Shown: positions 11,101 to 34,392 of the stretch, piece after piece | How positions within the stretch are numbered: position 1 is the first letter of the stretch | Layout of the letters: the number at the start of each line of letters is the position of its first letter | Assembly (NCBI RefSeq): GCF_900172355.1 | Contig: NZ_FWFZ01000031.1 | Coordinates: 1 to 36,144, forward strand | Length of the DNA: 36,144 nucleotides | Reading direction: 5' to 3' | From: Roseisalinus antarcticus | GTDB lineage: Bacteria > Pseudomonadota > Alphaproteobacteria > Rhodobacterales > Rhodobacteraceae | Program-made: the position numbers and the translations under genes | The notes under the pieces: model-generated | Told to the model about the DNA's origin: nothing | Seen by the model: the letters and a program-made list of their open reading frames with translations, nothing else | The model's database searches: none

Positions 11101-12059
11101 GTCCAATCGAGCCCGTTCACGCGCCAATTGTCCGGTGTCGAGCTATCAACGTCCTGCTCAACCCGAGGCCTGATTTCACACGCGCCCGCCCGCAGATCAT
11201 CACCGAACCAGGACGCGATCAAGGTCACCGCTTCGAGGTTTGGAACCGCCGCCTGCAGATTGTCGAGCGACACCAGGAAGTCAGCCCGATCCGCAATCGC
11301 GTGCACATTCTGAGTGACCTCGCTTCCGTCCGCCCCGCGCCGATGCGCTGTCGTCGCATAGGAGAACTCGCCAGCACCGGGCAGGATCGCCACGCTGCGA
11401 ACCAACGTCTCCGCGCCGCCATCCTCCGCCAGCGTCCGGAACACCTCGAACGACAGCTGCGGCAGGCGATTGCCATGATCCTGCAGCGGCATGTCGTCGA
11501 ACATCACGTAGGCAGTGCCCCGGTAGGCCGGAGCCCGATCGGCCCCCATCTTCGAAGTGATGACAGGATCTGGCGTCTGCGTTTCTGAGCCGGGATACCA
11601 GCGCAGCGTGATGCCAGAGGTGTCCAGCAATTTGCCGTCAGCCCAGACCCGACCGAGGCCCGTGATCTCGCCCTCGCAGAGCGCGACCGCAAACGAGGCG
11701 TAATAGAGATACTCGGTCGTCTCGGTCTTGGGTCCGCCGCCGCCTTTACCCCCACCGCTGGTGGTCGTGGTCTCTTCGCGGAAATCCGTGGCCCAGATCA
11801 GCTGACCGCCAAGGCGCATCCGGCCAAAGACCCGTGGCACCACTGCGCCCTCGGTCGCCGAGGTGATCCGCAAGGTGTCGAGCCGTGGCCCCTCGATCCG
11901 CTGGGTCGGCGCGAGCGAGGAAATGATCCAGCTGTCGACCGCCGAACCGATGGTGGAGCCCACGAATCCGCCGATCGTCGCCGCACTCACACCGAGGACC
12001 GCCCCACCGATGCTGCCGCCAAGCGCAGCGCCCGCGGCGCCAAGAACGAGCGTTGCCAT
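8118..12059 (-). CDS. GTA-type TIM-barrel tail tip protein (megatron, host specificity protein)
   Basis: This is a 1313-residue baseplate protein. The Gly/Ala-rich N-terminus (residues 1-45, LGAAGAALGGSIGG) is the hydrophobic helix seen in this family. The DTLRITSATEGAVVPRVFGR segment (residues 61-80) and the ATDFREE-TTTTSGGGKGGGG loop follow. The glycoside-hydrolase-like TIM barrel (GTA_TIM, PF13547) covers about 435-735, with the strand VDFVGIDNFMPVSDWR at about 544-559. A phage tail-3 domain lies at about 790-950, and a fibronectin-like C-terminal tail follows. It forms the central tail spike and its enzymatic part. The start is supported by a GGAG site in TCTGGAGTTCTC. Its usual upstream partner, the NlpC/P60 gene, is 12.2 kb away beyond foreign DNA. 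Confidence 0.92.
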   Translation of the reverse strand: MATLVLGAAGAALGGSIGGAVLGVSAATIGGFVGSTIGSAVDSWIISSLAPTQRIEGPRLDTLRITSATEGAVVPRVFGRMRLGGQLIWATDFREETTTTSGGGKGGGGPKTETTEYLYYASFAVALCEGEITGLGRVWADGKLLDTSGITLRWYPGSETQTPDPVITSKMGADRAPAYRGTAYVMFDDMPLQDHGNRLPQLSFEVFRTLAEDGGAETLVRSVAILPGAGEFSYATTAHRRGADGSEVTQNVHAIADRADFLVSLDNLQAAVPNLEAVTLIASWFGDDLRAGACEIRPRVEQDVDSSTPDNWRVNGLDWTNALVVTANANGLPMFGGTPSDGSIVQAIQELKARGLRVTFRPQLLMDILVGNAMPDPYSNNAAASGQGAFPLASRITCSPAAGFTGTVDKSVGAGSQIADFFGDAAVSDFDVVGEAVSWTGASGDWGYRRMVLHYAHICDAAGGVDAFLIGGQLPSLTTVRSGAVTYPAVTQLIDLAEDAAAVLGSGVAVSYGADWSEYSGHRPDDGSNDVYFHLDPLWSNAAVDFVGIDNFMPVSDWRSGADHLDAVAGWESIYDRAYLKANMAGGEFFDWIYASPADRAGQTRTAIVDTGGKPWVYRAKDIRSWWSNQHYNSPGGVESASPTDWTAEMKPIRFTALGCPAIDRGTNQPSAVQMGRSSDSAVPYHSRGYRDDAIQRSFLEASLAFWSDPTNNPAGMVDLANSSVWAWDARPYPQFPDILTVWSDTGDWEIGYWITGRLGSSSLPALVSALCLRARLPANRFDASALVGSCEGLVITGLESPRGTISGLARHFGFDAVESEGLIRFVMRNRNASVTLTHDDLVDTGSGDILELIRGQETELSQSLKWQVIRSDGDFDPAQVEARRITVTSQRANMESFPLAVSLQEAERRVQRALIEEWAAREKASFKLPPSRLALDPSDVVILAHDGRGMSFRLVSIADSGVRCIEAIRQDQQAYDSIPGLARASVPRVPVVFGTPVVALMDLPQLAEGVPAHRPYVAAHALPWPGSMAALRSPTTDAFELVTTFGLRAQIGVVAAEFAPGPTSRFDHVNALLIDLYSGQMASVTDLTLFAGANSLAIESSPGVWEIVQAGTVELVSSRRYRLSRLLRGQRGTEGAIGSPTPVGSRVVVLDDTIFPLPIAESDVGIPYNWRVGPSARAVSDDSYRGAAFTAEGVGLRPFSVAHVQQPYLRPRAGDDLLIAWTRRSRSLAADTWAGINVPLIEGGLSFEVDILDGASVVRTLATSVSSVVYSAAAQTADFGAPLAARDSLSIRIFQLSDLVGRGAPKSATLIL

Positions 12060-12091
12060 GAGAACTCCAGAGCAAAGGATGAAGGAAATAT

Positions 12092-12115
12092 GGAAGGAAG
12101 GAAGGAAGGAAGGAA
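12092..12115 (-). repeat. (TTCC)6 microsatellite upstream of the megatron gene
   Basis: Six perfect GGAA units on the plus strand (TTCC on the minus strand) lie 33 bases upstream of the start codon at 12059. Further degenerate GAAGGAAA sequence continues towards the gene. The tract ends at the proposed left junction of the 12-kb insert. Tetranucleotide tracts of this length are prone to slippage and can change promoter or leader spacing. Confidence 0.85.
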
Positions 12116-12240
12116 CGGCCAGAGGCGTTTTGAGACCGGCTTTAGGTATTAGGCTCGGGCCGCGCCGGTCTGACCAACAGCACCCGTCGGGCGCGTCATG
12201 CGATAGCTGTGGGCAGCAACTGATCGTTCACTTTCCACCA

Positions 12241-12715
12241 AATGGATCGAAGCCACCGGCTTCCAGCCGGTCCGCTTCAGCGTATCTTTTCTGATCTTCC
12301 TCCGCGCACACGCGATTTTATCACAGATACCACGTCGTGTGGGCCACGAAGTACCGGTACAAGGTTCTGCAGGGCGCAATGCGTGAGCGGATCCGTGAAA
12401 TCATTATCCAGACTTGCGAAGAACTGAGTATCCATATCGTGAAAGGCATTTTGGCGCGCGATCATGTCCACATGTTCCTGTCGATCCCGCCCTAGCTGTC
12501 CCTGTCCGATGTTATGCAGCGCATCAAAGGCCGCTCATCACGCCGCATCCAGATGGAGTTCCCCGACCTGCGCAAGCGGTATTGGGGAAGGCGCTTTTGG
12601 GCGCGTGGGTATTTCTCCACGACCTCCGGGAACGTGACTGACGACGTCATCAACCAGTACCTGGAATTACATTCCTCCAAGTGATGCCTCCGGCGTCAGC
12701 CGGTGGTCCTTCACT
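12241..12715 (+). mobile_element. IS200/IS605-family element, decayed
   Basis: A tnpA relic (12298-12684) is flanked by two subterminal hairpins typical of single-strand IS200/IS605 elements. The left one is ACCGGCT-TCC-AGCCGGT (12255-12271, 7-bp stem). The right one is CCGGC-GTCA-GCCGG (12690-12703). Such elements carry no terminal inverted repeats and make no target duplication, so exact ends cannot be assigned. It lies at the left edge of the 12-kb insert. Confidence 0.8.
12298..12684 (+). pseudogene. tnpA: IS200-family Y1 transposase TnpA, inactivated
   Basis: The frame encodes HTRFYHRYHVVWATKYRY at its beginning, the HUH-type motif DHVHMF, and the C-terminal segment WARGYFSTTSGNVTDD, all characteristic of IS200-type TnpA. 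It is broken twice. A TGA lies two codons before the visible N-terminus with no start codon between, and a TAG stands at 12493-12495 just after IPP, where the family has a sense codon (one-base change from AAG is likely). The catalytic HUH motif survives, but a full-length protein cannot be made. Such single-strand transposases act at replication forks, which makes this relic a candidate footprint of past mobility. Confidence 0.85.
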
Positions 12716-12767
12716 ACAAAGGCGTCCGATCATCATTCGCTGACGGTGGTCAGGTTGGGCAGAGAGG

Positions 12768-12930
12768 GCGGATTGCAGACCTTCGCTGCACCGTGCAGGA
12801 ACTTACACAGTGCGGACAAAGCCGCTTTATGCAGTCGCAGCTATTGCTGACGCAGCATTTCCTCGCGCTTGCAGCGGCGAGCATTTTGCAACGCAGCGGA
12901 ATTCACCAGAGCGGCCATTGAGAAGCCAAA
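12768..12930 (-). repeat. Dispersed intergenic repeat, copy B
   Basis: This copy is in inverted orientation relative to copies A and C. It contains GCGGACAAAGCC, CGCAGCATTT and a terminal GCGGCCATTGAGAAG, echoing the reverse complement of copy A (CCGGCCATTCAAGC). Positions 12780-12820 match copy D at 34913-34953 in 36 of 41 positions. The following 300 bases (12931-13231) hold nothing that I can recognise. Confidence 0.65.
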
Positions 12931-13231
12931 AACGGGTAAGTGGTCATTCGTTCAATGAGTTCAGATTGCGGCAAAGTCCCGTGCTGTGTAGGTTCCAGCA
13001 GTGTACATCCAATTGCCGCAACACTCATATTCTATTTCTATTCACCAAGATTCTTGATTGTGCACGGATGGTGCCTGTTAGGCCTTTCGGGGCGGGTGCA
13101 ATCAAGTACAGAAACGATAAACCCCGCCTCTAATGTACAAAGCCCTTATATTTTGGCTCACTCTTAACGCATCGTAATTGAAGACCTGTGTGAGCCTTGT
13201 CAAATCATAGACCATTATCTTGGTTGTCCGG

Positions 13232-14122
13232 TTACTGTTCGGCTTTCCAGTTAAACTGACGGGCGGCCGACAGTATCGACCGCAGATACTTTGTATCCTC
13301 GCGACCGTATGGAACCGAGAGCGAAACAGTACGGCCCAAGGTCTGCCCGCTGAGCGGGCGGGTTTGCAGCCCCTCGATAATCACTGATCCGACGGGCAAG
13401 ATTGTCACCCCCACGCCAGCAACAGCAAGTGTTTGTATCCAGTCGTCACGTTCACTACGTGCCACGAAGTTGACGGGCAGCCCTTGCCGTGCGGTTTCTT
13501 CGATGAATGTATCGCGAAATTCACAATTCAGCCGGTCCAGATATAGTTCCTGTGTGACCTGTTCCAGTGTGATTGTATTTTGCCGATTGAACCGATGATC
13601 GGGGCCGAAACCGACGACCATGTCTTCGCCGTAAAGTTCAGTATATTTAAAGCGCGGTTCATCTTTCAGGGTAGCGCCCACAAGGGCACAATCGACAAAT
13701 CCGCTGATCAACATCTCGTTGATTTTGTCACGGTCGGCATTGCGCAAGACAACTTCAACGCCGGGGTTTTCTTTGCACCACTGCCGCAAGAACGCCTGAA
13801 ACCGAGTGGGCCCGATAGTGCACATCACCGCGATCTGGACTTGTGGTGTCTCGCCGTTGACCAGACGCTGTGCAGTCAGTTCTGCGCGCTGGACGGTTTC
13901 ATCAACCTTTTTGAGCTGTTCTTGCATCAAGCGACCCAAATGCGTCAGGTGCGTCCGTGTGCCTTCGCGCCGGATCAGGGTGCCGCCGATTTCGTCCTCA
14001 AGCTTGCGCACCGCCTTGGACAACGCGGGTTGTGACAGGCCCAGCCTGCGTGCGGTTTCTGAAAAGTTTAACGTTTCACATAGTGCAACAAAATAACGGG
14101 TGCGGCGAATATCCATCTTCAA
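13232..14122 (-). CDS. LysR-family transcriptional regulator (intact paralogue 1)
   Basis: A 296-residue regulator of normal LysR length. The winged helix-turn-helix spans residues 1-60 (YFVALCETLNFSETARRLGL, SQPALSKAVRKLEDEIGG) and the effector domain spans about 92-296. Cysteines at 15, 101, 145 and 200 are conserved in the second LysR of this window. Cys200 in LNCEFRD falls about where OxyR has its reactive Cys199, but the partner cysteine is not evident, so thiol sensing is only a suggestion. It is divergent from the SPW/FMN-synthase/ThDP/aldehyde dehydrogenase operon with an operator-like site between them. It therefore probably controls that operon and itself. The effector is unknown. 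Confidence 0.9.
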   Translation of the reverse strand: MKMDIRRTRYFVALCETLNFSETARRLGLSQPALSKAVRKLEDEIGGTLIRREGTRTHLTHLGRLMQEQLKKVDETVQRAELTAQRLVNGETPQVQIAVMCTIGPTRFQAFLRQWCKENPGVEVVLRNADRDKINEMLISGFVDCALVGATLKDEPRFKYTELYGEDMVVGFGPDHRFNRQNTITLEQVTQELYLDRLNCEFRDTFIEETARQGLPVNFVARSERDDWIQTLAVAGVGVTILPVGSVIIEGLQTRPLSGQTLGRTVSLSVPYGREDTKYLRSILSAARQFNWKAEQ

Positions 14123-14177
14123 TGCCTTCTTGATAAGTCGTGTCGGTCCATCTTACGCGATGATCGATCGATACTAC

Positions 14178-14200
14178 TAGTTATCGAAACGATAGCTGAT
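14178..14200. promoter_or_regulatory. Candidate LysR operator 1
   Basis: TAGTTATCG-AAA-CGATAGCT followed by GAT is an almost perfect inverted repeat lying 56-78 bases upstream of the LysR start. Of its 23 positions, 18 are identical to the site at 23237-23259 upstream of the paralogous LysR gene. A second smaller palindrome, GTTAC-TGGG-GTAAC, lies at 14210-14223 nearer the plus-strand operon. This layout fits a LysR recognition site plus an activation site in a divergent promoter. Confidence 0.6.
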
Positions 14201-14276
14201 TTGTACGCAGTTACTGGGGTAACGTCCAGCCAATGCACGCCAAATTATTGGCCCAACCCTAAAGAGAGTATTCAAA

Positions 14277-14642
14277 ATGATCCGTTTCATGAACAAAACC
14301 CTGCATGCCTATCTGGACTACCCTGTCGCTCTTGGCTTGATCGCGATGCCGTTAATCTTTGGGCTGGGTGCAACGCATCCACTGGCGTTCTGGCTATCTG
14401 TTGCCACTGGTGTGGCCGCCTTTGTGCTGACGATTTTTACCGATCATCAGTTCGGGCTTGTGCGCATCCTACCTTATAAGCTGCACCTTGCCGTTGATTT
14501 TATGGTCGGCGTGGTCTTCATCGCGGCACCTTTTGTGCTGGGCTTCGTCGGGCTGGACGCGGCCTATTACTGGTTCTTTGGCGCCACGGTTCTGGTCGTC
14601 GTCGCTCTTGATAGCACCCCGCAGACCGCGCCCGCCGCATAG
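14277..14642 (+). CDS. SPW-repeat-like four-helix membrane protein
   Basis: This 121-residue integral membrane protein has four hydrophobic stretches, at about 16-31, 36-54, 70-90 and 96-113. Each pair starts with an acidic residue and ends in a Pro-containing segment (LIAMPLIFGL, VFIAAPFVLGF), the pattern of SPW-repeat proteins, although the literal Ser-Pro-Trp is changed. The start has an AAAGAGAG site 7-8 bases upstream. It is the first gene of the operon divergent from LysR 1. The molecular function of the family is unknown; a stress or envelope role is commonly assumed. Confidence 0.75.
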   Translation: MIRFMNKTLHAYLDYPVALGLIAMPLIFGLGATHPLAFWLSVATGVAAFVLTIFTDHQFGLVRILPYKLHLAVDFMVGVVFIAAPFVLGFVGLDAAYYWFFGATVLVVVALDSTPQTAPAA

Positions 14643-14702
14643 CGGGCCACGGACGTCCACACCCACGCCACCATAACCCAACAACCCGTAAGGGGCAGTT
14701 TC

Positions 14703-16229
14703 ATGCAGTCTATTTTCGACACTTTCGTCATGACCAATATCAATTTCTTCACCACAGCATTCATCTTTTTGATGGGGCTGGCGGTGTTGGCGATCGCGGT
14801 GATGTTTGTCATCGACATTACGCAATCCAAAGACGCGGTGCGCCGGAATTACCCCGTTTTGGGCCGGTTCAGGTCACTGTTTACGACTTTGGGCGAATTC
14901 TTTCGACAGTATTTCTTTGCGATGGACCGCGAAGAAATGCCGTTTAACCGTGCTGAGCGTGACTGGATCGGACGGGCGGCAAAGGGTGCCGATACCACTG
15001 TGGCGTTCGGGTCTAGCAAGGTGCTGACGGCGCCCGGAACGGCAATATTTGTCAACTGTCCCTATCCCACGTTGGACGATGACGCAGTCGAGGTGCAACC
15101 GCTGCGCATCGGCGACGGGTGTCCGCAGCCCTATGACGCGCCTTCGTTCTTTAACGTTTCCGCGATGAGTTATGGCGCACTTTCCACCCCAGCCGTTCAG
15201 GCCTTGTCAAAAGGTGCCAAGATGGCGGGATGTTGGATGAACACCGGTGAGGGTGGTTTGTCACCCTATCACCTGGAGGGTGGCGCAGACATCGTTTTTC
15301 AGATCGGCACGGCCAAATACGGCGTGCGGGGTGCAGACGGAAAATTGTCGGACGACAAACTCCGCGAAGTCGCGGCCCATGACCAAGTCAAAATGTTCGA
15401 ACTCAAGCTGAGCCAAGGTGCGAAGCCCGGCAAGGGCGGGATTCTTCCGGGTCGCAAGGTGAATGCCGAAATTGCGGCCATTCGCGGTATTCCTGAGGGC
15501 GAGGATTCAATCTCTCCCAACCGCCACCCCGAGATTAACGATGCGGCGTCTTTGCTGGATATGATCAACCACATCCGCGATGTCACCGGCAAGCCGGTTG
15601 GGTTCAAGGCAGTCGTGGGCGCCTACGGTTGGTTGTCGGATGTGGCCGAGGAAGTCCACCGCCGTGGCATCCAATCCGCACCCGATTTCATCACCGTAGA
15701 CAGTGGTGATGGCGGCACGGGTGCGGCACCGATGCCTTTGATGGATAACGTTGGACTGGTAATTAAGGAATCGCTGCCTCTGGTCGTGGATGTACTGGTC
15801 GAACACGGGCTGCGCGACCGCGTTAAGGTCATCGCGTCTGGTAAGCTTGTCACACCGTCAGAGGTCGCTTGGGCGCTGGCAACGGGTGCTGAATTTGTCA
15901 ATTCCGCACGCGGTTTCATGTTTTCGCTGGGCTGTATCCAATCGCTGAAATGCAACAAAAATACCTGTCCCACGGGAATTACGACAAACAACAAGCGTTT
16001 GCAAAAGGGCCTGAATCCGGCTGAAAAATCGGTAAAAGTCGCCAATTTCTGCCTCAATCTGGTGCATGAAGTCGAAGTCATCGCGCATTCGTGCGGCGTT
16101 GGGCGACCACGGCTGTTGTCGCGCAAACATGTGCGGATCGTGCGGCCCGACGGAACATCCGTGCAGATGGAGGATCGTTTCCCCAACAAGGAAATCCTGC
16201 CCGACTACAGGCCAGCCCCCGCAGCTTAG
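14703..16229 (+). CDS. Membrane-anchored FMN-binding glutamate synthase-like protein
   Basis: This 508-residue protein starts with a transmembrane helix (about 16-40), followed by a cytoplasmic (beta/alpha)8 domain of the glutamate synthase alpha-subunit type. Markers are the FMN/substrate segment TVDSGDGGTGAAPMP and the [3Fe-4S] ligand set C411-x5-C417-x4-C422 in LGCIQSLKCNKNTCPTG. It lacks the amidotransferase domain, so it is not a complete glutamate synthase. Relatives of this type are often annotated FMN-binding glutamate synthase family protein, with unknown substrate. It lies 60 bases after the SPW gene with an AAGGGG ribosome site. Its place in an operon with a ThDP enzyme and an aldehyde dehydrogenase suggests amine or amino-acid breakdown. 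Confidence 0.88.
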   Translation: MQSIFDTFVMTNINFFTTAFIFLMGLAVLAIAVMFVIDITQSKDAVRRNYPVLGRFRSLFTTLGEFFRQYFFAMDREEMPFNRAERDWIGRAAKGADTTVAFGSSKVLTAPGTAIFVNCPYPTLDDDAVEVQPLRIGDGCPQPYDAPSFFNVSAMSYGALSTPAVQALSKGAKMAGCWMNTGEGGLSPYHLEGGADIVFQIGTAKYGVRGADGKLSDDKLREVAAHDQVKMFELKLSQGAKPGKGGILPGRKVNAEIAAIRGIPEGEDSISPNRHPEINDAASLLDMINHIRDVTGKPVGFKAVVGAYGWLSDVAEEVHRRGIQSAPDFITVDSGDGGTGAAPMPLMDNVGLVIKESLPLVVDVLVEHGLRDRVKVIASGKLVTPSEVAWALATGAEFVNSARGFMFSLGCIQSLKCNKNTCPTGITTNNKRLQKGLNPAEKSVKVANFCLNLVHEVEVIAHSCGVGRPRLLSRKHVRIVRPDGTSVQMEDRFPNKEILPDYRPAPAA

Positions 16230-16277
16230 GCGATGACCTTTAACCCTTAAAACGCGCTTTCATAGGATGATTTTACC

Positions 16278-17942
16278 ATGACCAATCCCGCCACGCCAAC
16301 GATCAAAGCCTCGGACCTCTTTGTCAAAGCCCTTGAGGCAGAGGGCGTCACAGAAATCTTTGCCGTTCCCGGCGAAGAAAACCTTGATCTGGTTGAATCG
16401 TTACGCACCTCGACCATCAAATTGATCCTGACCCGGCATGAACAGGGGGCGGCATTCATGGCCGCGACCTACGGCCGTTTGACGGGAAAACCGGGTGTGT
16501 GCATGGCGACACTTGGGCCCGGGGCGACCAATTTTGCCACACCGGCCGCCTATGCCCATCTGGGTGGCTTTCCTTTGATCATGATCACTGGTCAGAAACC
16601 CATCAAGACATCCAAACAGGGCCAGTTCCAGATCATTGATGTCGTGAACCTGTTCGATCCGATTTGCAAAATGTCCAGACAGATCGTGCACGGCAACACG
16701 ATCCCCGCTTTGGTCCGCGAGGCCTTTCGTCTGGCAAGCGAGGAACGACCGGGTGCGGTGTTGTTGGAATTGCCCGAAGACATTGCCGAGGAACCTTGCG
16801 ATGCGGTCGTAATCCCGCCGCACCCGCGTTATTATGCGCAGGCTTGTGACACTGTCATCGGCGCCGCCGCCAACCTGATCCGCGCAGCCAAAATGCCGCT
16901 GGTTTTGTTGGGGGCGGGGGCGAACCGCAAGGACGTGCGCAGCGCTTTGTCGGATTTCATCGATACCACCGGCATCCCGTTTTTCTGCACCCAAATGGGC
17001 AAAGGCGTGGTTGATGAACGCTCCGCACTTTTCCTTGGAACCGCGGCATTGTCGGATAATGATTATTTGCACTGCGCCATTGACCGATCTGACCTGATTA
17101 TCAATTTCGGTCATGACGTGATTGAAAAACCCCCATTTTTCATGGAGGTCGGCGGCAAACAGGTAATCCACGTCAACTATAAATCGGCAAAGGTAGACGA
17201 GGTCTACTTCCCCCAAGTCGAAGTTGTCGGCGATATGGCGGCCTCAATCGCGCAGCTGCAAGACGCGGTTGGGGGCGATTTGAACCTTGATACGCGGTAT
17301 TTTGAAACGGTGCGCGCAGAGGTTGAACACCACCTTGGTGAAGGCGTCGATGACCCGCGTTTCCCTGTCACCCCGCAGCGTTTTGTGGCCGACACCCGCA
17401 GGGCCATGGGCGACACGGATATTATCGCGCTGGATAACGGGATTTATAAAATCTGGTACGCGCGCAATTACAAAGCCTATGAACCAAATACTGTCCTGTT
17501 GGACAATGCGCTTGCCACGATGGGCGCGGGTCTGCCTTCGGCGATGGCTGCGGCGTTTGTCCACCCTGAACGCCGCGTCATGGCGATTTGCGGTGATGGC
17601 GGGTTTATGATGAACAGTCAGGAACTTGAGACAGCAATTCGGATGAAGCTGAACCTTGTTGTGCTGGTGCTGAACGACAGCTCTTATGGCATGATCCGCT
17701 GGAAACAATCGGCTGCGGGGTTTGATGACTGGGGCTTGGAATTCGAAAATCCCGATTTCGTGAAATATGCCGAAAGCTATGGCGCGACAGGCCACCGGAT
17801 CATGGCGGCGGATGATTTACTGACAACGTTCGAGGCGGCCTTTGCAGCAGGTGGTGTGCATCTGATTGATTTGCCAGTTGATTACTCTGAAAACCAAAAA
17901 GCGCTAATCGATGAACTGGCGGCCAAGGCGTGTTTGCTATGA
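16278..17942 (+). CDS. ThDP-dependent acetolactate synthase-like enzyme
   Basis: A 554-residue protein of the acetohydroxyacid synthase/decarboxylase superfamily with three domains: pyrimidine-binding (about 8-175), central Rossmann (about 190-320) and pyrophosphate-binding (about 365-540). The catalytic Glu55 in RHEQGAAF activates ThDP. The ThDP/Mg motif begins at G439-D440-G441 (GDGGFMMNSQELETA) and ends in LNDSSYGMI. No small regulatory subunit gene is adjacent, and the surrounding genes are not for branched-chain synthesis. A catabolic carboligase or decarboxylase producing an aldehyde for the next gene is therefore more likely than biosynthetic IlvB. It shares an ATGA overlap with the aldehyde dehydrogenase gene. 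Confidence 0.88.
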   Translation: MTNPATPTIKASDLFVKALEAEGVTEIFAVPGEENLDLVESLRTSTIKLILTRHEQGAAFMAATYGRLTGKPGVCMATLGPGATNFATPAAYAHLGGFPLIMITGQKPIKTSKQGQFQIIDVVNLFDPICKMSRQIVHGNTIPALVREAFRLASEERPGAVLLELPEDIAEEPCDAVVIPPHPRYYAQACDTVIGAAANLIRAAKMPLVLLGAGANRKDVRSALSDFIDTTGIPFFCTQMGKGVVDERSALFLGTAALSDNDYLHCAIDRSDLIINFGHDVIEKPPFFMEVGGKQVIHVNYKSAKVDEVYFPQVEVVGDMAASIAQLQDAVGGDLNLDTRYFETVRAEVEHHLGEGVDDPRFPVTPQRFVADTRRAMGDTDIIALDNGIYKIWYARNYKAYEPNTVLLDNALATMGAGLPSAMAAAFVHPERRVMAICGDGGFMMNSQELETAIRMKLNLVVLVLNDSSYGMIRWKQSAAGFDDWGLEFENPDFVKYAESYGATGHRIMAADDLLTTFEAAFAAGGVHLIDLPVDYSENQKALIDELAAKACLL

Positions 17943-19324
17943 CCGGCACGCTAGAGGTCGTAAACCCGTTCGATCTGACCACGATTGGTTCAGTGCCGCT
18001 GGTCGGGTGGGATGATATCGACGGGTCTTTGAAAGTCGCGACGCAGCTGCACAAAACCCGCAAGGCGTGGCTGCCAGCCCATCAACGGGCCGCGATCCTG
18101 ACAAAAGCGGCCACGCTGATGCAGGACAGGTTCGAAGATCTGGCCTTCCAGATCGCTAACGAGGGTGGCAAGCCTTTGGTGGATGCACGCATCGAAGTGA
18201 CCCGCGCGATTGATAGTGTCCGCCTGTGTGTTCACGAAATCGCAGGTCTGGCAGGGGAACAAATCCCGATGGATTTGACGCAGGCGGGTGCAGGGCGGAT
18301 CGCATTTACGCAGCGCGAACCAATCGGGCCGGTCGTTGCAATATCAGCGTTCAATCACCCGCTGAACCTGATTGTGCATCAGGTGGCCCCCGCCATTGCG
18401 ACGGGGTGCCCGGTCTTGGTCAAACCCGCCGATGACACACCACTGTCGTGCAAATCCTTTGTCGATATTCTGCTTGAGGCGGGATTGCCTGAAGAATGGT
18501 GCCGCTTTGTGCCTTGCGACCTCGCAACCGCCGAAAAACTGGTCACCGATCCGCGCGTTGCATTCTTTAGCTTTATCGGCTCGGCCAAGGTCGGCTGGAT
18601 GTTGCGGTCCAAATTGGCCCCCGGCACACGCTGTGCGTTAGAACACGGCGGAGCCGCCCCGGTGATCGTGGACAAAAGCGCCGATTTTGACGCGATGATC
18701 CCGGACCTCGTCAAAGGCGGGTTCTACCATTCTGGTCAGGTCTGCGTGTCAGTGCAGCGTGTGTTCGCGCCCAAAGACATGGCGGAAGAGATTGCAGAAC
18801 GGCTCGGGTCTGCCGCGTCGCAACTCGTCGTGGGGAACGCGATAGACGCAACCACGCAAGCAGGCCCGTTGATCCGCCCGCGCGAGGTTGACCGCGTGGC
18901 TGACTGGGTGGCAGAGGCAGAACAGGCTGGCGCACAAATCCTAACAGGTGGCGACAAGATCAGCGCGACAACCTATGCGCCTTCGGTCCTGCTGGGTGTG
19001 CCGAAAGACGTGAAATTATCCCAGAATGAAGTTTTCGGGCCCGTTGTCTGCGTCTATGAATACGACAGTATCGACGCGGCCATCGATCAGGCCAATGGCC
19101 TGCCCTTTGCATTTCAAGCGTCGGTATATTCACAAAACCTTAAAGTGGCGATGCAGGCGGTTCAGCACCTTGATGCGACGGCCGTTATGGTGAATGACCA
19201 TACCGCATTTCGTGTTGACTGGATGCCATTTGCCGGGCGCAGGCAATCGGGATATGGCACTGGCGGGATCGGGTATACCATGCACGACATGACCCAAGAA
19301 AAAATGGCTGTGATCAAGAATTGA
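17939..19324 (+). CDS. Aldehyde dehydrogenase family protein
   Basis: An NAD(P)-dependent aldehyde dehydrogenase of 461 residues. The general base Glu235 (LEHGGAAP) and nucleophile Cys269 (HSGQVCVSV) are 34 residues apart, exactly the family spacing. The Rossmann cofactor segment SFIGSAKVGW precedes them, and FGPVVCVYEY and NDHTAFRVDWMPFAGRRQSGYG mark the C-terminal part. The ATG at 17939 overlaps the stop of the ThDP enzyme gene (ATGA), indicating translational coupling. The start at 17930 used by longest-frame logic is less likely. Coupling suggests it oxidises the aldehyde formed by the upstream carboligase/decarboxylase. The substrate is unknown. Confidence 0.9.
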   Translation: MTGTLEVVNPFDLTTIGSVPLVGWDDIDGSLKVATQLHKTRKAWLPAHQRAAILTKAATLMQDRFEDLAFQIANEGGKPLVDARIEVTRAIDSVRLCVHEIAGLAGEQIPMDLTQAGAGRIAFTQREPIGPVVAISAFNHPLNLIVHQVAPAIATGCPVLVKPADDTPLSCKSFVDILLEAGLPEEWCRFVPCDLATAEKLVTDPRVAFFSFIGSAKVGWMLRSKLAPGTRCALEHGGAAPVIVDKSADFDAMIPDLVKGGFYHSGQVCVSVQRVFAPKDMAEEIAERLGSAASQLVVGNAIDATTQAGPLIRPREVDRVADWVAEAEQAGAQILTGGDKISATTYAPSVLLGVPKDVKLSQNEVFGPVVCVYEYDSIDAAIDQANGLPFAFQASVYSQNLKVAMQAVQHLDATAVMVNDHTAFRVDWMPFAGRRQSGYGTGGIGYTMHDMTQEKMAVIKN

Positions 19325-19436
19325 CCTTGGAAGGTCCGGGCGCGCGCCTTCGTTTTGAGGGGTCAGTGCGGGATAAACCTTCCTCTGCATGTCCAATTGG
19401 ATAATAACAGTAGCAAGCACATCGAAAAGGATGTCT

Positions 19437-19721
19437 ATGGCACGTTTTTTAAAGATCGTGATTCCCGTCTTCTTATTTGGATTTATCACAGGAAACGCAT
19501 TCTGGTACCTTGCGTCACCACTGTGGATCGACCGCGAAGTTTCGGAAAGCCTCCCCGCTGATTTGGTCCTGACCGAAGTTGCCAGTGGCACCTTTCGAGA
19601 CGCCGATAGAGCACATAACGGCGAGGGCCGTGTCGCCGTGCTGCGCACTGGTAGCGGTGCAGGGCTTGTTCGCCTTACTGAATTTCGCGTCACGAACGGG
19701 CCAGACCTGAGCTATGCTTGA
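19437..19721 (+). pseudogene. DM13-domain protein, C-terminus lost
   Basis: The product starts with an N-terminal membrane anchor (ARFLKIVIPVFLFGFITGNA) and then a DM13 segment: GTFRDADRAHNGEGRVAVLR, then RLTEFRVTNGPDL. DM13 domains are proposed redox or electron-transfer modules of extracytoplasmic proteins. The family normally continues with a further 50 or more residues after GPDL, including a conserved cysteine region. Here the frame ends three residues later in sequence next to an IS256-family remnant, so the gene was truncated by that element. The ATG at 19437 with AAAAGG 6 bases upstream is preferred over 19431. Confidence 0.7.
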
Positions 19722-19740
19722 ATTTGGGTGACGCGCATCA

Positions 19741-19968
19741 TCAGGCGGCGCGGTTTTCGGTATCGTTGTTCTGTTCGATACCGTCTGTGAACTTGATTCC
19801 TTCGATGACTTTTGGCAACTGATTTTTGCCTTTGAGGCGCAACCATTTCTTTGAAGCCGCTTGGATAAGGGTGAAGGCCATCAGTTTTGCTGTCTTTTGC
19901 GACAGCGCTCCCTTGGTCCGTACGGTGCGGTGCCGAACAGTGGCGAAGGTCGCAACCGAAGTATTCGA
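19741..19968 (-). pseudogene. IS256-family (mutator) transposase, C-terminal fragment
   Basis: Reading the minus strand from about 19968 to the TGA at 19743-19741 gives FATVRHRTVRTKGALS, then KTAKLMAFTLIQAASKKWLR and QLPKVIEGIKFTDGIEQN. This is the characteristic end of mutator-type IS256 transposases. No start or catalytic DDE region remains. The fragment separates the truncated DM13 gene from the AhpD-like gene and explains the loss of the DM13 C-terminus. The rest of the 19722-20077 gap carries no other recognisable gene. Confidence 0.85.
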
Positions 19969-20077
19969 ACGTCTTGTAAACGCGGATCATAACATACGCC
20001 TGACCTGTCTGTTTCTGCGGCGCGTGGGTGCAACCCGCGCAGAATGGCGCGAAAAAATTCCAACTGAAGGACAAGAA

Positions 20078-20542
20078 ATGGACGATATAACTTTCACAAA
20101 TACACGATTTGACCCTGATCTGGTCGCCTTTCACGGCATCGCCAAGGAGATGGCGAAGTCCGTGGGCTACACCGCAGACATGTCGGTAGATGCCAAACTC
20201 GCCCAACTCTTGCGCCTGCGCGTTGCGCAGATGAACGCCTGTTCCTATTGCTTGATCCTGCACACCAAAGCCGCCCACGACCAAGGCATACACTCCGCTA
20301 AGGTGGCGCACTTGGCCAGTTGGCCCGAGAGCACGATGTTTTCGCCAGCCGAACTGGTTGCGTTGGCTTATTGTGAAGGGCTGACGGATTACGACCTTGC
20401 GGGATTCCCACCGCTTCACCAAGCGATGACTGATCATTTCTCTGACACCGAAATTGCTGAAATTGCGGCCATTGTGATCAACATGAATCTTTGGACACGG
20501 CTCAAGCTGGCCCAAGGCGCGACGCCGGTTCAGGAAACCTAA
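20078..20542 (+). CDS. Carboxymuconolactone decarboxylase / AhpD-like protein
   Basis: This 154-residue helical protein has the AhpD-type redox motif Cys-x-x-Cys with downstream His (NACSYCLILHTKAA), as in alkylhydroperoxidase D and CMD-family proteins that reduce peroxides or act as thiol redox partners. The start follows AAGGACAAGAA (ribosome site 6-7 bases upstream). It is the first of three tightly packed genes (AhpD-like, antiporter, MsrA): one base separates it from the antiporter gene. The company of MsrA points to oxidative-damage defence. The gene begins just after IS256 remnant DNA, so its original promoter may have been replaced. Confidence 0.87.
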   Translation: MDDITFTNTRFDPDLVAFHGIAKEMAKSVGYTADMSVDAKLAQLLRLRVAQMNACSYCLILHTKAAHDQGIHSAKVAHLASWPESTMFSPAELVALAYCEGLTDYDLAGFPPLHQAMTDHFSDTEIAEIAAIVINMNLWTRLKLAQGATPVQET

Positions 20543-20543
20543 A

Positions 20544-21767
20544 ATGGATCTGTCCCACAGCGCACAAGAATTGGTTTTGGTCGGGGTTCTGATCTGCATC
20601 TTCGTCTATTCACTTTTGACAAAGGCGATCTCTAAAACGATCCTGACATTGCCGATCATCTTTATGGTCATCGGCTATCTGTGTGCTGTACCGTTGGAAA
20701 TGGCCGCCGAACCCGAAACATTGGACGAAGGCGCACGCCTTTTGGCCGAGATCACGCTGGTGCTTGTGCTGTTCACGGATGCTAGCCACGTGCGGTTCAT
20801 GTCATTGCGCAAGTACGTCGGTGTTCCCGCCCGAATGTTGGTTGTAGGATTACCGTTGACGATTGGGCTGGGGATGGTGGTCGCCTATCTTCTCAGCCCT
20901 GAAAGCGGGCTGGCGATGGCCTTGCTAACCGCCGCTGTGTTGACCCCGACGGATGCGGCACTGGGTCAAACTGTTGTGTCGAGCAAGGACGTGCCAGAGC
21001 ATCTGCGCCAGACGATCAATGTCGAAAGTGGCCTCAATGACGGATTGGTGCTGCCGTTTGTCTTGCTGGGGGCCATTCTGGCGTCAGCGACAATGGAGGG
21101 CGCACATACTGATGGCCTCGCGATGTCCGCGATGATGCAAATCCTGCTGGGTCCTCTTGTTGGCCTTGCAATTGGGTGGTGCGCGGCAAAGGCGATGGAC
21201 GTGGCCCAAGACAAAGACTTGATCGCTGAAGCGGCTGGTGGCGTTGCGTTTCTTGCCGTAGCCTTTGTGGCCTTCATCGGGTCTGAGATCATCGGCGGAA
21301 ACGGTTTCATCGCGGCCTTCGTCGCTGGGATGGTTTTCGGGAATACGTATCGCCACGAAATCCACTTCATTGGGGAATTCATGGAAGGCGTCGGACAATT
21401 GCTCACCATGTTTGCTTTCCTCATCTTTGGTGCGTTGTTGCTGCCAGATGGTTTGGAACACATGACCTGGGGCGCTGTTGTGCTGGCCCTGCTTTTTCTA
21501 ACCGTGGTGCGCATGCTACCCATATTTGTCTCCCTTATGGGCACAGGTCTGGCGCTGCGTGAAAAGCTATTTTTGGGGTGGTTCGGGCCACGGGGCATCG
21601 CCTCGATCCTGTTCACGCTGATCATGATGGATGAATTCGACTTCCCCGGCGAAGAAGAACTTTTGGCCTGTGTTTCAATGACTGTCTTTTTGTCGATCAT
21701 CCTGCATGGAATTTCGGCCGCACCGCTTTCCAAATGGATCGGACAGGCCTCGCGCTCAGGCCGCTAA
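20544..21767 (+). CDS. CPA1-type cation:proton antiporter
   Basis: A 407-residue membrane protein with about 12 hydrophobic segments. The ion-binding motifs of Na+/H+ exchangers are clear: TPTDA with Asp137, and ESGLNDG with Asn165-Asp166. It exchanges Na+ or K+ for protons across the inner membrane. The start codon follows the AhpD-like stop by one base, so the two are probably co-translated. There is no C-terminal TrkA-C regulatory domain, which makes it short for the family but complete in its transport core. Confidence 0.88.
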   Translation: MDLSHSAQELVLVGVLICIFVYSLLTKAISKTILTLPIIFMVIGYLCAVPLEMAAEPETLDEGARLLAEITLVLVLFTDASHVRFMSLRKYVGVPARMLVVGLPLTIGLGMVVAYLLSPESGLAMALLTAAVLTPTDAALGQTVVSSKDVPEHLRQTINVESGLNDGLVLPFVLLGAILASATMEGAHTDGLAMSAMMQILLGPLVGLAIGWCAAKAMDVAQDKDLIAEAAGGVAFLAVAFVAFIGSEIIGGNGFIAAFVAGMVFGNTYRHEIHFIGEFMEGVGQLLTMFAFLIFGALLLPDGLEHMTWGAVVLALLFLTVVRMLPIFVSLMGTGLALREKLFLGWFGPRGIASILFTLIMMDEFDFPGEEELLACVSMTVFLSIILHGISAAPLSKWIGQASRSGR

Positions 21768-21784
21768 ATCTAAGAGGGTTTGCT

Positions 21785-22294
21785 ATGGCCACAGTAAAAA
21801 TCGGCTTTGGTGGGGGATGTCACTGGTGCACAGAGGCCGTGTTCCAATCCCTGCGCGGGGTCACCAAAGTAGAGCAGGGGTTCATCAAATCCCATGCGCC
21901 GCATGATAGCTACTCGGAGGCGGCTCTGATTACTTTCGATTCAAGCGTTATCCCGTTGGACGTCCTGATCGACGTGCACTTAAGAACCCACGCCAGCACT
22001 TCGCCTCACAAGATGCGTGGCAAATACCGCAGTTCTATCTATGTGTTATCGCAACAAGTTGCAGCTGAGACATCCGCTGTACTGGAGAAATTGCAAGGCG
22101 GCTTTGCAGACAAGATCGTCACAATGGTATTGCCCTTCGACGGCTTCAAACCGTCGCTTGAACAATTTCACGATTATTACCGAACAAATAGCGAAAGGCC
22201 ATTTTGCAAGACCTATATCGACCCAAAGCTTGCGAAAATCAGGCGTCAATTTGGAAATTACTACGCGTCTGCTAGTACGAACCCGTCCAACTAA
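21785..22294 (+). CDS. msrA: Divergent peptide-methionine (S)-S-oxide reductase
   Basis: MsrA repairs oxidised methionine. The 169-residue protein has the active-site motif GGGCHWCTEAVF with Cys12 as nucleophile. The family usually has GCFWC, so Phe is changed to His here. The segment that normally reads Y-x-x-V-x-x-G-x-T-G-H-A-E is replaced by KSHAPHDSYSEA, so the substrate pocket differs. The C-terminal FHDYYRTN and KTYIDPKL segments are typical. The ATG at 21785 has AGAGGG 6-7 bases upstream. Third gene of the AhpD-antiporter operon; its 3' end overlaps the convergent LysR 2 gene by two bases. Confidence 0.82.
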   Translation: MATVKIGFGGGCHWCTEAVFQSLRGVTKVEQGFIKSHAPHDSYSEAALITFDSSVIPLDVLIDVHLRTHASTSPHKMRGKYRSSIYVLSQQVAAETSAVLEKLQGGFADKIVTMVLPFDGFKPSLEQFHDYYRTNSERPFCKTYIDPKLAKIRRQFGNYYASASTNPSN

Positions 22295-23182
22295 GCTTTA
22301 GATTTCCAGTCAAACCTGCGCAGCGCTGAGAGCAGGGAGCGCAAATGCACGGTGTCCTCTCGACCAAACGGAGCGGCAAGAGAAACGTTGCGTCGCAGTG
22401 CTGCTGCTCCAATCGGGCGGGTTTCCAGGCCTTCGACAATTACCGATCCAACGGGCAAGATTGTGACACCCAAGCCGCCACGAGCCAGTGTCTGAATCCA
22501 GTCTTCACGCTCGCTGCGCGCCGCAAATTGGATTTCGTGGCCCACCCGTGCGCTCTCGGTCATAAAAGTGTCTCGAAATTCGCAATTCAGCCGGTCCAGA
22601 TAAGGTTCCTGCATGATCTGTTCCAGGTCCACGGTGTTGAGCCTTGAAAAGCGGTGCTCTGGCGAAAATGCAACCACCATGTCTTCCCTAAAAAGTTCCG
22701 TGTATTTAAATCTGGGCTCGTTCGACAGTGGCCCCCCAACAAGCGCGCAATCGACGTAGCCGCTCAGCAGCATATCCCCAATCTTGTCACGATCCGCATT
22801 GCGCAGGACAATTTCCACCTCTGGATATTTCTTGCGCCATTCCTGAAGGAATGCGCAAAATCGACTTGGTCCGATGGTACACATGACCGCTATCTGAATC
22901 TGTGGCATGTCCCCATTGACGAGCTTTTTTTGCAGCCAGTTCAGCCTGTAACGTTGTTGCGTCAACTTTTTGAAGCTGTTCATGCATCAACCGACCCAGA
23001 TGCGTCAGGTGCGTCTTGATCCCTTCGCGACGGATCAAAGGGCCGCCTATTTCATCTTCAAGTTTTCTGATCGCCTTGGATAGTGCCGGTTGAGACAAGC
23101 CAAGCTGACGAGCAGCTTCCGAAAAATTGAGCGTCTCGCAAAACGTGATGAAATATCTGATGCGGCGGATGTCCATCTTCAT
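22291..23182 (-). pseudogene. LysR-family regulator paralogue 2, split by a +1 frameshift in an A7 run
   Basis: The first 85 residues (start 23182) and the rest of the protein (to the stop at 22291) are in different frames. Together they align end to end with LysR 1. The break is at seven A on the minus strand (22931-22925) in GCTGCAAAAAAAGCTC. With six A the product would read AAKKLVNGD, matching AQRLVNGE of LysR 1. Both domains are otherwise well conserved, including the cysteines in VMCTIGP, VDCALVG and LNCEFRD. This suggests a recent break, slippage-restored expression, or a sequencing error. It is divergent from the cytochrome P460-like gene. Confidence 0.85.
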
Positions 23183-23236
23183 TGTCTCCGTGAGTAGCTT
23201 TGACCAGCAAGGAATACGATATTTTACTATTCCTGA

Positions 23237-23259
23237 TAGTTACTAAAACCATAACTGAT
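23237..23259. promoter_or_regulatory. Candidate LysR operator 2
   Basis: AGTTA-CTAAAACCA-TAACT is an inverted repeat 55-77 bases upstream of the LysR 2 start and about 65 bases before the P460-like start. It matches the LysR 1 site at 14178-14200 in 18 of 23 positions at the same distance from the regulator gene. Shared positions include both arms (TAGTTA and the C-T-G-A-T end). This supports cross-regulation by the two paralogues. Confidence 0.6.
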
Positions 23260-23323
23260 CGGCGAGGTCAAAACTGATATGATTGAACTTCAGAATATCG
23301 ATAATAAAACAGGATGGTTAGTT

Positions 23324-23908
23324 ATGAAGAGAATTTCGATTGCAATGACCTTAACACTTATTGCCGGGGCAGCTGTTGCTCAGAACATCAACGGTCCAAC
23401 CTATAACGACGCAGGGGCCGTCAACTCGCCAACCGATTGGCGGCAATGGATTTTTGTTGGCGCGCCGTTGACGCCAAACGCGCTCAACGGGGGCGAGGCC
23501 GCCTTCCCTGAGTTCCATAACGTTTATGTCGAACCAAGTGCCTTTGCTCATTATGTCGATACTGGAGAATGGGCCAATGGCACCCAGATCGCTAAAGAAT
23601 TGACGCTACTTCACGAGGGCGACAACTGCGATGAAGAGACAGGGGCCTGTTTTGAGGTATCCGGACAGGGATACTTTCAAGGTGAGTTTTCTGGACTTGA
23701 GCTGACGGTCAAAGATACGGAACGTTTCGCTGACGAGCCCGGTGGTTGGGTCTATTACAGCTTTGGCCACAAACCAGAACCATACGAAACAACAGCACAA
23801 GCGTTTCCGACGGAATCGTGCAATTCTTGTCACGAGGCAAGTGCCGACACAGACTTCGTTTTTACTCAGTTTTACCCGGTACTTCGGGCCGTTCAACCCA
23901 AGGAGTGA
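23324..23908 (+). CDS. Periplasmic cytochrome P460-like haem protein
   Basis: A 194-residue precursor with a clear signal peptide (MKRISIAMTLTLIAGAAVAQ, cleavage after AVA). It has one c-type haem site, Cys166-x-x-Cys169-His170 (CNSCHEA), close to the C-terminus, as in the cytochrome P460/c'-beta group, whose members bind or oxidise hydroxylamine and nitric oxide. The WVYYSFGHKP segment before the haem site fits that fold. The ATG at 23324 has AGGA 9 bases upstream. It is divergent from LysR 2 and probably under its control. Whether the unusual Lys crosslink of true P460 is present cannot be judged by eye. Confidence 0.78.
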   Translation: MKRISIAMTLTLIAGAAVAQNINGPTYNDAGAVNSPTDWRQWIFVGAPLTPNALNGGEAAFPEFHNVYVEPSAFAHYVDTGEWANGTQIAKELTLLHEGDNCDEETGACFEVSGQGYFQGEFSGLELTVKDTERFADEPGGWVYYSFGHKPEPYETTAQAFPTESCNSCHEASADTDFVFTQFYPVLRAVQPKE

Positions 23909-23976
23909 GTCGTGCAAGTCGTCTACCCCGTTATCAAAACGCGTTAGGCTTGTGATTTGAAGGTGTTCGCAATTAT

Positions 23977-24009
23977 AAGTCGTCCTCGGCTGTGTCTCGA
24001 GGACGACTT
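23977..24009 (+). terminator. 12-bp stem-loop downstream of the P460-like gene
   Basis: AAGTCGTCCTCG and CGAGGACGACTT form a perfect 12-bp stem around a 9-base loop, 68 bases after the stop at 23908. There is no T tract, so it is either a factor-assisted terminator or an mRNA 3'-protecting hairpin. It may also mark the boundary of the metabolic cargo. The remainder to 24098 shows nothing recognisable. Confidence 0.5.
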
Positions 24010-24098
24010 GCTGAGATATGTAGTTGCCAAAAGATCCGCATTTGAAATGCCGGCCAAAGACGCGTTGTCTAATTTCGTGGCTTCCATTTGCTGCACAT

Positions 24099-24256
24099 TG
24101 CTTGAATGACCGCATTCGTCTCTGCGCTGCGGCGACGATGTCACGTCGGCGTAGCATGTTTTCGTGCTGCTTGCGCTCGCAGCGAAGATTTGACTCTTTC
24201 GCAATGGGCTCCGAATTGCCGTTCGCCGCGCTTTGGTTGAAGGTCCGCAGTGGGCC
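24099..24256 (+). repeat. Dispersed intergenic repeat, copy C
   Basis: This copy aligns with copy A at 4267-4423. It starts GCTTGAATGACCGCATTCG and ends GAAGGTCCGCAGTGGGCCG, where similarity stops exactly. The next bases, GGAAC at 24257, belong to the phage flank 9 bases beyond the NlpC/P60 stop codon. It therefore marks the right end of the 12-kb insert. Confidence 0.75.
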
Positions 24257-24269
24257 GGAACTTCTAGCT

Positions 24270-24719
24270 TTATGGCTGTAAACCTTCGGTTTCCTCATTC
24301 TTTTGAAACAGGAAGGCAAAGGCGATGCGCCGCCGCCAGGACTCGGACATGGCCTCCTCGATCACGCCAAGTCGCTCGTAGGCATGGACGAAGGTCCCGT
24401 CCCGCGTGAGGATCCCGATGTGCTTCGAAATGGCCCGCGGCATCATCCTGAACACCAGCATATCGCCAGGACCGGCTTCCGCAGGCAGAACCTCCGGCAT
24501 GACGCCCCGGGCACTTTCGGCGATGACCTCGTGCGCACCGGTCTCGCCCCAATCCCGACTATAGGGTGGCATGGGAAACGGCTCGTCGCCGATCACATCC
24601 CGCCAAACCCCGCGCGCCAGACCGAGACAATCGCAGCCGACACCCCGCAGGCTGGCCTGGTCGTGGTAAGGCGTCCCAAGCCAAGACCGAGCTGACGCTA
24701 TCACGCGATCAGCTGACAT
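24270..24719 (-). CDS. NlpC/P60 phage tail peptidase (GTA gp14-like)
   Basis: A 149-residue cysteine peptidase that sits in the tail tip and cuts peptidoglycan peptides during DNA entry. Catalytic Cys31 is in GVGCDCLGLARG and His100 in SKHIGIL; PAEAGPGDMLVF is the typical strand before it. The start at 24719 overlaps the DUF2163 stop (TGATG). A longer upstream extension would be out of family. The C-terminus is complete, so the junction with the inserted DNA lies in the intergenic space, not in the gene. In related phages and GTAs the megatron gene follows directly; here it is 12.2 kb away. Confidence 0.9.
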   Translation of the reverse strand: MSADRVIASARSWLGTPYHDQASLRGVGCDCLGLARGVWRDVIGDEPFPMPPYSRDWGETGAHEVIAESARGVMPEVLPAEAGPGDMLVFRMMPRAISKHIGILTRDGTFVHAYERLGVIEEAMSESWRRRIAFAFLFQKNEETEGLQP

Positions 24720-26565: not shown

Positions 26566-26612
26566 GAAGTCCTCCTAGTTTTTAGAAATTACCCCGCGTC
26601 CGAGGCCAGGGA

Positions 26613-27083: not shown

Positions 27084-27084
27084 G

Positions 27085-27288: not shown

Positions 27289-27323
27289 GACAATCCTCTA
27301 TCAGCTGGTCGGAGCGGGCAGCG

Positions 27324-34368: not shown

Positions 34369-34392
34369 ATCAGTCTCCTTGAATTGTTGGGA

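What the first reader, a model, noticed from the sequence alone, without database searches (positions are those of the whole stretch)
12060..24269. A 12-kb block of metabolic genes sits inside a phage tail operon, with a possible 5-bp target duplication
The sequence shows NlpC/P60 and megatron genes, neighbours in GTAs and related phages, both intact but 12.2 kb apart on the same strand. GGAAC flanks the block at 12112-12116 and 24257-24261, and the inner ends are CGGCC and GGGCCG. Removing the block joins the NlpC/P60 stop to a short leader with the TTCC tract and the megatron ribosome site. The right junction coincides with the exact end of a dispersed repeat. This suggests a mobile cargo element without its own transposase, or repeat-driven capture of chromosomal genes by a phage locus.
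Basis: partly seen in the sequence, partly recalled or inferred. Interest (0 to 1): 0.7.

Follow-up and report, generated by a model that had tools for sequence, protein, structure and literature searches.

The report
Host DNA lodged in broken prophage
A 12-kilobase stretch of ordinary, partly decayed bacterial DNA sits between two tail genes of a broken virus relic; it shows no sign of being a mobile element of its own, but some related viruses carry other foreign genes, a few of them defence-like, in the same gap.

Summary
The arrangement is real; the proposed mechanism is not supported. NlpC directly precedes megatron at 31 of 35 prophage-type megatron starts in 120 genomes of the family, three of them in this same genome. 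The closest relative, viral contig L137, matches the window down to 24305 and again from 12059, with 22 bp between. So the insert is 12060-24304 (12,245 bp), replacing the last NlpC codons and the megatron leader. The right GGAAC lies 44 bp inside it, so it is no target duplication; the repeat end at 24257 is not the junction. The block has the GC of the flanking host DNA (54.1%; phage halves 63.8 and 64.0) and holds a broken IS200/IS605 transposase, an IS256-type end, truncated genes and a split LysR gene. Four same-genus genomes lack it. Best reading: already reworked host DNA entered a prophage by non-homologous recombination. New lead: in a 177-locus survey this gap held cargo in 7 of 176, including five different, partly defence-like cargos in five sister prophages. 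Other tail gaps are enlarged about as often, so the site is permissive, not uniquely hot.

The parts
12060..24304 (.). Inserted block of host-type DNA, 12,245 bp
   Evidence: L137 matches stop at 24305 and resume at 12059; GC 54.1% against 63.8/64.0% in the phage halves
24270..24719 (-). NlpC/P60 peptidase gene; codons from 24304 downward (QKNEETEGLQP and stop) are foreign
   Evidence: Pfam PF00877; protein P0001; relatives' ends
8118..12059 (-). Megatron (GTA TIM-barrel tail protein), open, 1313 aa; native leader replaced
   Evidence: Pfam and PHROG phrog_4271
24305..34812 (-). Rest of the tail module: hub, tail hydrolase, DUF2460-type, tape measure, major tail protein, terminator
   Evidence: 90.5% DNA identity to L137 over 9,980 bp
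5832..5868 (+). tRNA-3'-end-like sequence, probable attachment site (inferred)
   Evidence: nine copies in this genome with up to 2 mismatches; ARAGORN finds no intact tRNA at four of them
12227..12721 (+). Broken IS200/IS605-family element (in-frame stop in tnpA)
   Evidence: Y1_Tnp 1.2e-39; 91% to a copy in G184; annotated tnpA on plasmids
13232..14122 (-). LysR-type regulator 1
14277..14642 (+). SPW-repeat membrane protein
   Evidence: PF03779
14703..16229 (+). Glutamate-synthase-domain protein
   Evidence: PF01645; 14733-19317 is 77% to G017
16278..17942 (+). Acetolactate-synthase-type TPP enzyme
   Evidence: NF006187, 848.6 bits, cut-off 509
17930..19324 (+). Aldehyde dehydrogenase
   Evidence: PF00171
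19389..19721 (+). Small ORF that runs into the IS256-type remnant; probably a truncated gene
   Evidence: no Pfam match
19709..19947 (+). One end of an IS256-family element with its 23-nt terminal repeat; rest missing
   Evidence: 90% to an IS256 element of Celeribacter plasmid pP73C
19957..22294 (+). Acetyltransferase remnant, carboxymuconolactone decarboxylase (20078-20542), antiporter (20544-21767), MsrA (21734-22294)
   Evidence: 19957-21746 is 72% to Phaeobacter plasmid pP75_f
22291..23182 (-). LysR-type regulator 2, split into two overlapping frames
   Evidence: 70% DNA identity to regulator 1
23279..23908 (+). Cytochrome P460-family protein
   Evidence: PF16694
23962..24257 (.). Dispersed repeats; 23962-24212 is 90% to C149, 24205-24257 is 85% to 4371-4423

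Best explanation
A prophage with a GTA-like tail was integrated here, probably at a tRNA-type attachment site, and is truncated (no head genes in the contig). A 12,245-bp stretch of host-type DNA, already reworked by IS elements and decay, entered between NlpC and megatron by non-homologous recombination, replacing about 22 bp. It was tolerated because the gap between these two cistrons breaks neither essential reading frame, and a defective prophage need not be packaged. The block is passenger DNA of several origins (a GltS-type/ALS/ALDH operon, a plasmid-type stress cluster, two LysR genes), not a transposon. Shown: boundaries, empty junctions elsewhere, composition, mosaic content, decayed genes. 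Inferred: the recombination route, that the block was reworked before it entered, and tolerance as the reason it persists.
For: L137 spans the empty site and is the nearest relative found of both flanks: 94-97% protein identity for four tail proteins, 95% NlpC, 84% megatron residues 1-425. 31 of 35 megatron starts have NlpC directly upstream, three in this genome. GC of the block equals the non-phage flanks. Block absent from 4 of 4 same-genus genomes. IS200/IS605 and IS256-type remnants, truncated and split genes inside the block; the phage ORFs are open.
Against: No donor locus or intermediate was found. No read data, so the junctions rest on one draft contig. For megatron residues 1-285 the genome remnant G156:C26 is closer (89%) than L137 (84%), and identity to L137 is uneven on both flanks (72-99% and 73-93% per bin), so recombination between phages before the insertion is likely. 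A 7-nt word shared near both junctions could be a trace of something more specific; by my arithmetic such a match has a chance of roughly 7%.
Confidence: 0.6

Rival explanations
1. The block grew inside the slot: several smaller pieces (IS elements, gene groups) entered the NlpC-megatron gap one after another, with deletions in between.
For: Related prophages carry 0.5-3.3 kb cargos in this gap and one carries an IS110 there. The block contains an IS256 end with the rest lost.
Against: No intermediate found. The phage ORFs are all open while several block genes are broken, which suggests that the decay is older than the insertion.
Confidence: 0.2
2. The block is ancestral chromosome and two different prophage remnants lie left and right of it.
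For: The genome holds megatron matches on nine contigs, so remnants are frequent; other remnants are broken or joined to other DNA right at the megatron start (G156:C26, G020:C2).
Against: The two halves share L137 as a close relative and their breakpoints are complementary to within 22 bp; same strand and correct order.
Confidence: 0.08
3. The contig is an assembly chimera.
For: Draft of 155 contigs with several related prophages; a short GGAA tract lies near the left junction.
Against: Neither junction sequence has a long identical copy elsewhere in the genome: 12060-14200 has no other match before the dispersed-repeat and LysR parts, and 24195-24320 has only a 40-bp 95% match. The junction patterns were searched only in viral contigs (0 matches each), which does not test this.
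Confidence: 0.07
4. A composite or cargo transposon carried the metabolic genes in, leaving a 5-bp duplication.
For: GGAAC at two places; IS remains in the block.
Against: GGAAC is inside the insert; the IS remains are internal, of two different families and broken; the repeat finder shows no inverted repeat pair of 30 nt or more in the window.
Confidence: 0.05

Closest known systems
Defective ('grounded') prophages that take up foreign genes (review PMC6379469; passages read)
   Same: Truncated prophage, foreign genes inside, IS remains
   Different: Here the empty site is known almost to the base; the block is large for one gap and has no evident selected function
Morons / accessory cargo in temperate phages (term recalled; passages in PMC6379469)
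   Same: Foreign genes between two conserved phage genes, mostly antisense to them
   Different: Morons are usually one or a few genes; this is 12 kb of mosaic, partly dead DNA. The sister-prophage cargos in L127, L130, L259, L260, L265 fit the term better
Hub-peptidase-megatron segment of RcGTA and related phages (PMC8601537 and PMC11409702; passages read)
   Same: Same gene order of hub, NlpC peptidase, megatron; PMC11409702 already notes insertions in the g11-15 tail cluster of some phages
   Different: In RcKvothe and nearly all surveyed loci NlpC and megatron abut
Stress-gene cluster on Phaeobacter gallaeciensis plasmid pP75_f
   Same: Acetyltransferase, carboxymuconolactone decarboxylase, antiporter in the same order, 72% DNA identity
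   Different: In the window the acetyltransferase is cut next to an IS256-type remnant, and MsrA follows the antiporter directly (one gene lies between them on the plasmid)

Membership tests
Composite / cargo transposon | Target-site duplication flanking the insert | tested here: not met
   GGAAC is 44 bp inside the right junction; no shared word at the breakpoints themselves
Composite / cargo transposon | Matching terminal inverted repeats or matching IS at both ends | tested here: not met
   No inverted repeat pair of 30 nt or more; IS200/IS605 remnant near one end only, IS256-type end internal. Shorter terminal repeats were checked only within 20 bp of the junctions
Composite / cargo transposon | Intact transposase | tested here: not met
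   Only a broken IS200/IS605 transposase and a 239-bp IS256 end
Defective prophage with foreign insert | Incomplete set of phage genes | tested here: met
   ORFs upstream of the terminator in six relatives had no match in the window; the contig ends about 1.3 kb beyond, so a split prophage is not excluded
Defective prophage with foreign insert | Empty site in relatives | tested here: met
   31 of 35; L137
Moron / accessory slot | Different cargos at the same place in close relatives | tested here: met
   Five sister prophages, five cargos without mutual blastn similarity. For the window's own phage lineage only L137 (empty) is known
Moron / accessory slot | Gap enlarged more often than other gaps of the module, all relatives taken together | tested here: not met
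   7 of 176 against 7 of 93, 3 of 143, 6 of 174, 15 of 159 at other gaps
Moron / accessory slot | Cargo expressed from its own promoter | tested here: inconclusive
   Promoter-like and terminator-like sites are no more frequent than in shuffles (10 against 7.5; 15 against 15.2)

The most novel reading that the evidence does not exclude
The NlpC|megatron junction is an accessory-gene slot of GTA-related prophages: in one clade all five members found carry a different, mostly antisense and partly defence-like cargo (Abi_alpha, an HSDR_N-like protein, a DUF1963 protein, a TPR-HEPN_LA2681 protein, one unknown), spliced in right after the conserved NlpC C-terminus and right before the megatron start. 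The window's 12-kb block is the largest occupant found: a slot that went on collecting host DNA after the prophage died.
Probability: 0.4. Interest if true: 0.5.

Novelty: new variant of a known kind. Interest (0 to 1): 0.33.

Why it matters
The locus is a clean example of host DNA entering a prophage operon without a transposon, with the empty site known almost to the base. The wider use is practical: where prophage tail genes that normally abut are pushed apart, the gap is worth reading for accessory genes. In one prophage clade the gap beside megatron holds a changing set of partly defence-like genes, which is a small, testable place to look for anti-phage functions.

Tried and rejected
Target duplication and mobile ends: rejected once the true junctions were fixed. 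Repeat-mediated capture: the repeat ends at 24257, not at the junction, and its close partner is at 4371-4423, outside the prophage and not at the block's left end. The block as one known unit: around the TPP enzyme in 80 named genome contigs (the best 80 of a capped list; up to 10 kb each side) I found the TPP gene, usually with the ALDH and sometimes a GltS-type gene, but not the LysR, antiporter or P460 genes of the block; two weak MsrA matches (25-29%) were the only other block genes seen there (E up to 1e-10). The right part against 295 family genomes and the left part against 394 gave scattered pieces only; there, and, the first look scored only two candidates per genome, so weak or further matches can be missed. 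I did not search viral contigs for the block genes. Junction-spanning patterns in viral contigs: 0 matches each. Right-end sequence in plasmids: no match. The claim that the NlpC|megatron gap is hotter than other tail gaps: tested and dropped. G000:C58 showed no NlpC at the threshold but has one directly before megatron, so I count it as empty. G156:C26 (major tail protein joined 18 bp before megatron) and G020:C2 (none of the other tail genes tested next to megatron) are not counted as cargo; G139:C16 ends at the contig edge. Rows dropped before the 177-locus survey: L262-L264 (same contigs as L125, L128, L131) and L266 (C-terminal match only); L034 (the G020 locus) could not be assessed. Phage record L258 (RcKvothe) was in the first survey, not in the 177. 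Survey loci were taken by similarity to three megatron queries and are not independent. Defence-library scan of six block proteins: nothing but one sub-convincing match of the LysR gene.
Full report
What was claimed.

The locus. The window is the whole of contig C77 (36,144 bp) in a 155-contig assembly of 5.0 Mb. From 34812 down to about 5970 on the minus strand lie phage tail genes: terminator, major tail protein, tape measure, a DUF2460-type protein with a long C-terminus, a tail hydrolase, the hub (DUF2163-type; both DUF numbers are recalled names), NlpC, then after the block megatron and a DUF2793 tail protein. ORFs that six relatives carry upstream of the terminator had no match in the window, so within this contig the prophage is truncated; the contig ends about 1.3 kb further on. 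Near the left end, at 5832-5868, is a tRNA-3'-end-like sequence found nine times in the genome (one exact, eight with one mismatch), once at the edge of another prophage contig, C58. ARAGORN found no intact tRNA at the four copies examined. That it is an attachment site is inferred.

Where the insert begins and ends. In relatives NlpC mostly ends ...FLFPQR* and megatron starts a few bases later. Viral contig L137 (IMGVR_UViG_3300035698_009923) matches the window at 90.5% DNA identity over 9,980 bp, stopping at 24305, and at 83.5% over 1,269 bp beginning at 12059; 22 bp separate the two matches in L137. Protein identities are 94-97% for tape measure, DUF2460-type, hydrolase and hub, 95% for NlpC and 84% for megatron residues 1-425, where the contig ends. 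A broken remnant in G156 is closer for megatron residues 1-285 (89%). Identity to L137 varies along both flanks (72-99% and 73-93% per bin). The simplest reading is one phage locus split by an insert at 12060-24304. The present NlpC stop, the TTCC tract and the megatron ribosome site are then all foreign.

How common the empty site is. In 120 genomes of the family, 35 megatron starts are at least 66% identical to the window's first 150 residues (E up to 1e-30). Pairing them by position with NlpC matches and reading doubtful ones gives: 31 with NlpC directly upstream; the window; one with an internal deletion (G156:C26); one where megatron has none of the other tail genes tested beside it (G020:C2); one at a contig end (G139:C16). 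Three of the 31 are other prophages of this genome (C117, C53, C58).

What the block is. Its GC is 54.1%, like the flanking non-phage DNA (54.2 and 54.7%) and unlike the phage halves (63.8 and 64.0%). From left to right: a broken IS200/IS605 element; a LysR gene; an SPW protein; a glutamate-synthase-domain protein, an acetolactate-synthase-type enzyme (NF006187 above cut-off) and an aldehyde dehydrogenase (together 77% to G017); a small ORF that runs into one end of an IS256-type element; an acetyltransferase remnant, carboxymuconolactone decarboxylase and antiporter as on a Phaeobacter plasmid (72%), then MsrA; a second, split LysR gene; a cytochrome P460; dispersed repeats. The four same-genus genomes gave no match to it; searches with the whole or with parts gave only pieces elsewhere. 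The IS256 remnant keeps its outer terminal repeat and lacks the rest, which I read as an old deletion that fused two gene groups. The phage ORFs are open while several block genes are broken, so the block was probably already reworked when it entered. That is inference.

No transposon signature. GGAAC is inside the insert, and short shared words are expected by chance (the control used mononucleotide shuffles, and the observed 16 shared 5-mers exceed the mean of 7.2, part of the left stretch being a GGAA tract). The repeat finder gave no inverted repeat pair of 30 nt or more. The transposase is broken. Neither true junction coincides with a repeat of this genome. A 7-nt word, GCAAAGG, occurs about 12 bp from both junctions; I do not build on it.

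The slot. In a survey of 177 loci with related tails (163 viral contigs, 14 genome stretches, chosen by similarity) the NlpC-megatron gap exceeded 300 bp in 7 of 176 and the hub-NlpC gap in 5 of 174. The seven: an IS110 (L196); a YCII protein, an ECF sigma factor and a weakly PHB-esterase-like protein (L204); and in five sister prophages Abi_alpha (L127), an HSDR_N-like protein just below the Pfam cut-off (L130), a DUF1963 protein plus an unknown (L259), an unknown (L260) and a TPR-HEPN_LA2681 protein (L265). Four of these five cargos run antisense to the tail operon; L259's do not. The five share 85-90% DNA identity in the first 1.5 kb of megatron, and their cargos show no blastn similarity to each other at E 1e-3. 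In all five, read by hand from the DNA, the codons after the conserved FGF of NlpC differ, as in the window; L196 and L204 keep a usual NlpC end. In the hub-NlpC gap, L024 (same genus, G003:C1) and L285 carry the same DHDPS-family ORF (they may be one prophage) and L223 a similar one, all antisense. Against over-reading: other tail gaps are enlarged about as often (7 of 93, 3 of 143, 6 of 174, 15 of 159, most of the last being one recurrent 0.5-kb size; the major-tail-protein to tape-measure gap, 22 of 106, has a median of 666 bp and was not examined further). Across all relatives the site is permissive rather than special.

Literature. PMC6379469 (passages) argues that defective prophages gather host genes; PMC8224337 (passages) reports metabolic genes in roseobacter prophages; PMC8601537 (passages) and PMC11409702 (passages) describe the shared hub, peptidase and megatron genes, the latter noting insertions in the tail cluster of some phages; the passages seen of PMC10783043 do not speak of this gap. 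I found no description of the NlpC|megatron gap as a cargo site in the listings; most subscription journals are not in the library.

Verdict. Host-type passenger DNA in a defective prophage: a well resolved but rather ordinary event, in a gap that one clade of related prophages fills with changing cargo.

Noticed in passing
G000 contigs C53, C58, C60, C62, C65, C77, C96, C109, C117: Ten megatron matches on nine contigs of one genome, one of them (C109, 43%) at the level of GTA copies in the family; an unusual load of related prophages.
   Followed up: partly
L265, antisense ORF between NlpC and megatron (within 8293-10001): A 525-residue TPR protein with a HEPN_LA2681 domain (4.5e-39), a candidate anti-phage protein.
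   Followed up: no
L024 5064-6067 and L223 6000-7046: DHDPS-family gene antisense in the hub-NlpC gap of prophages, also in L285: a recurrent metabolic cargo beside NlpC.
   Followed up: partly
window 21965-22044 and G000:C90:14334-14413: An 80-bp piece 89% identical to the block's MsrA gene lies on another contig, next to a motif CCTGAATCGGTGAC that also occurs near the right end of the window.
   Followed up: no
G156:C26:2569-2587 (L334): A prophage remnant in which the major tail protein gene is joined 18 bp before megatron, everything between being lost; its megatron start is 92% identical to the window's.
   Followed up: partly
window 13244-14133 and 22303-23193: The two LysR genes are 70% identical direct repeats about 9 kb apart around most of the block's cargo.
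   Followed up: no
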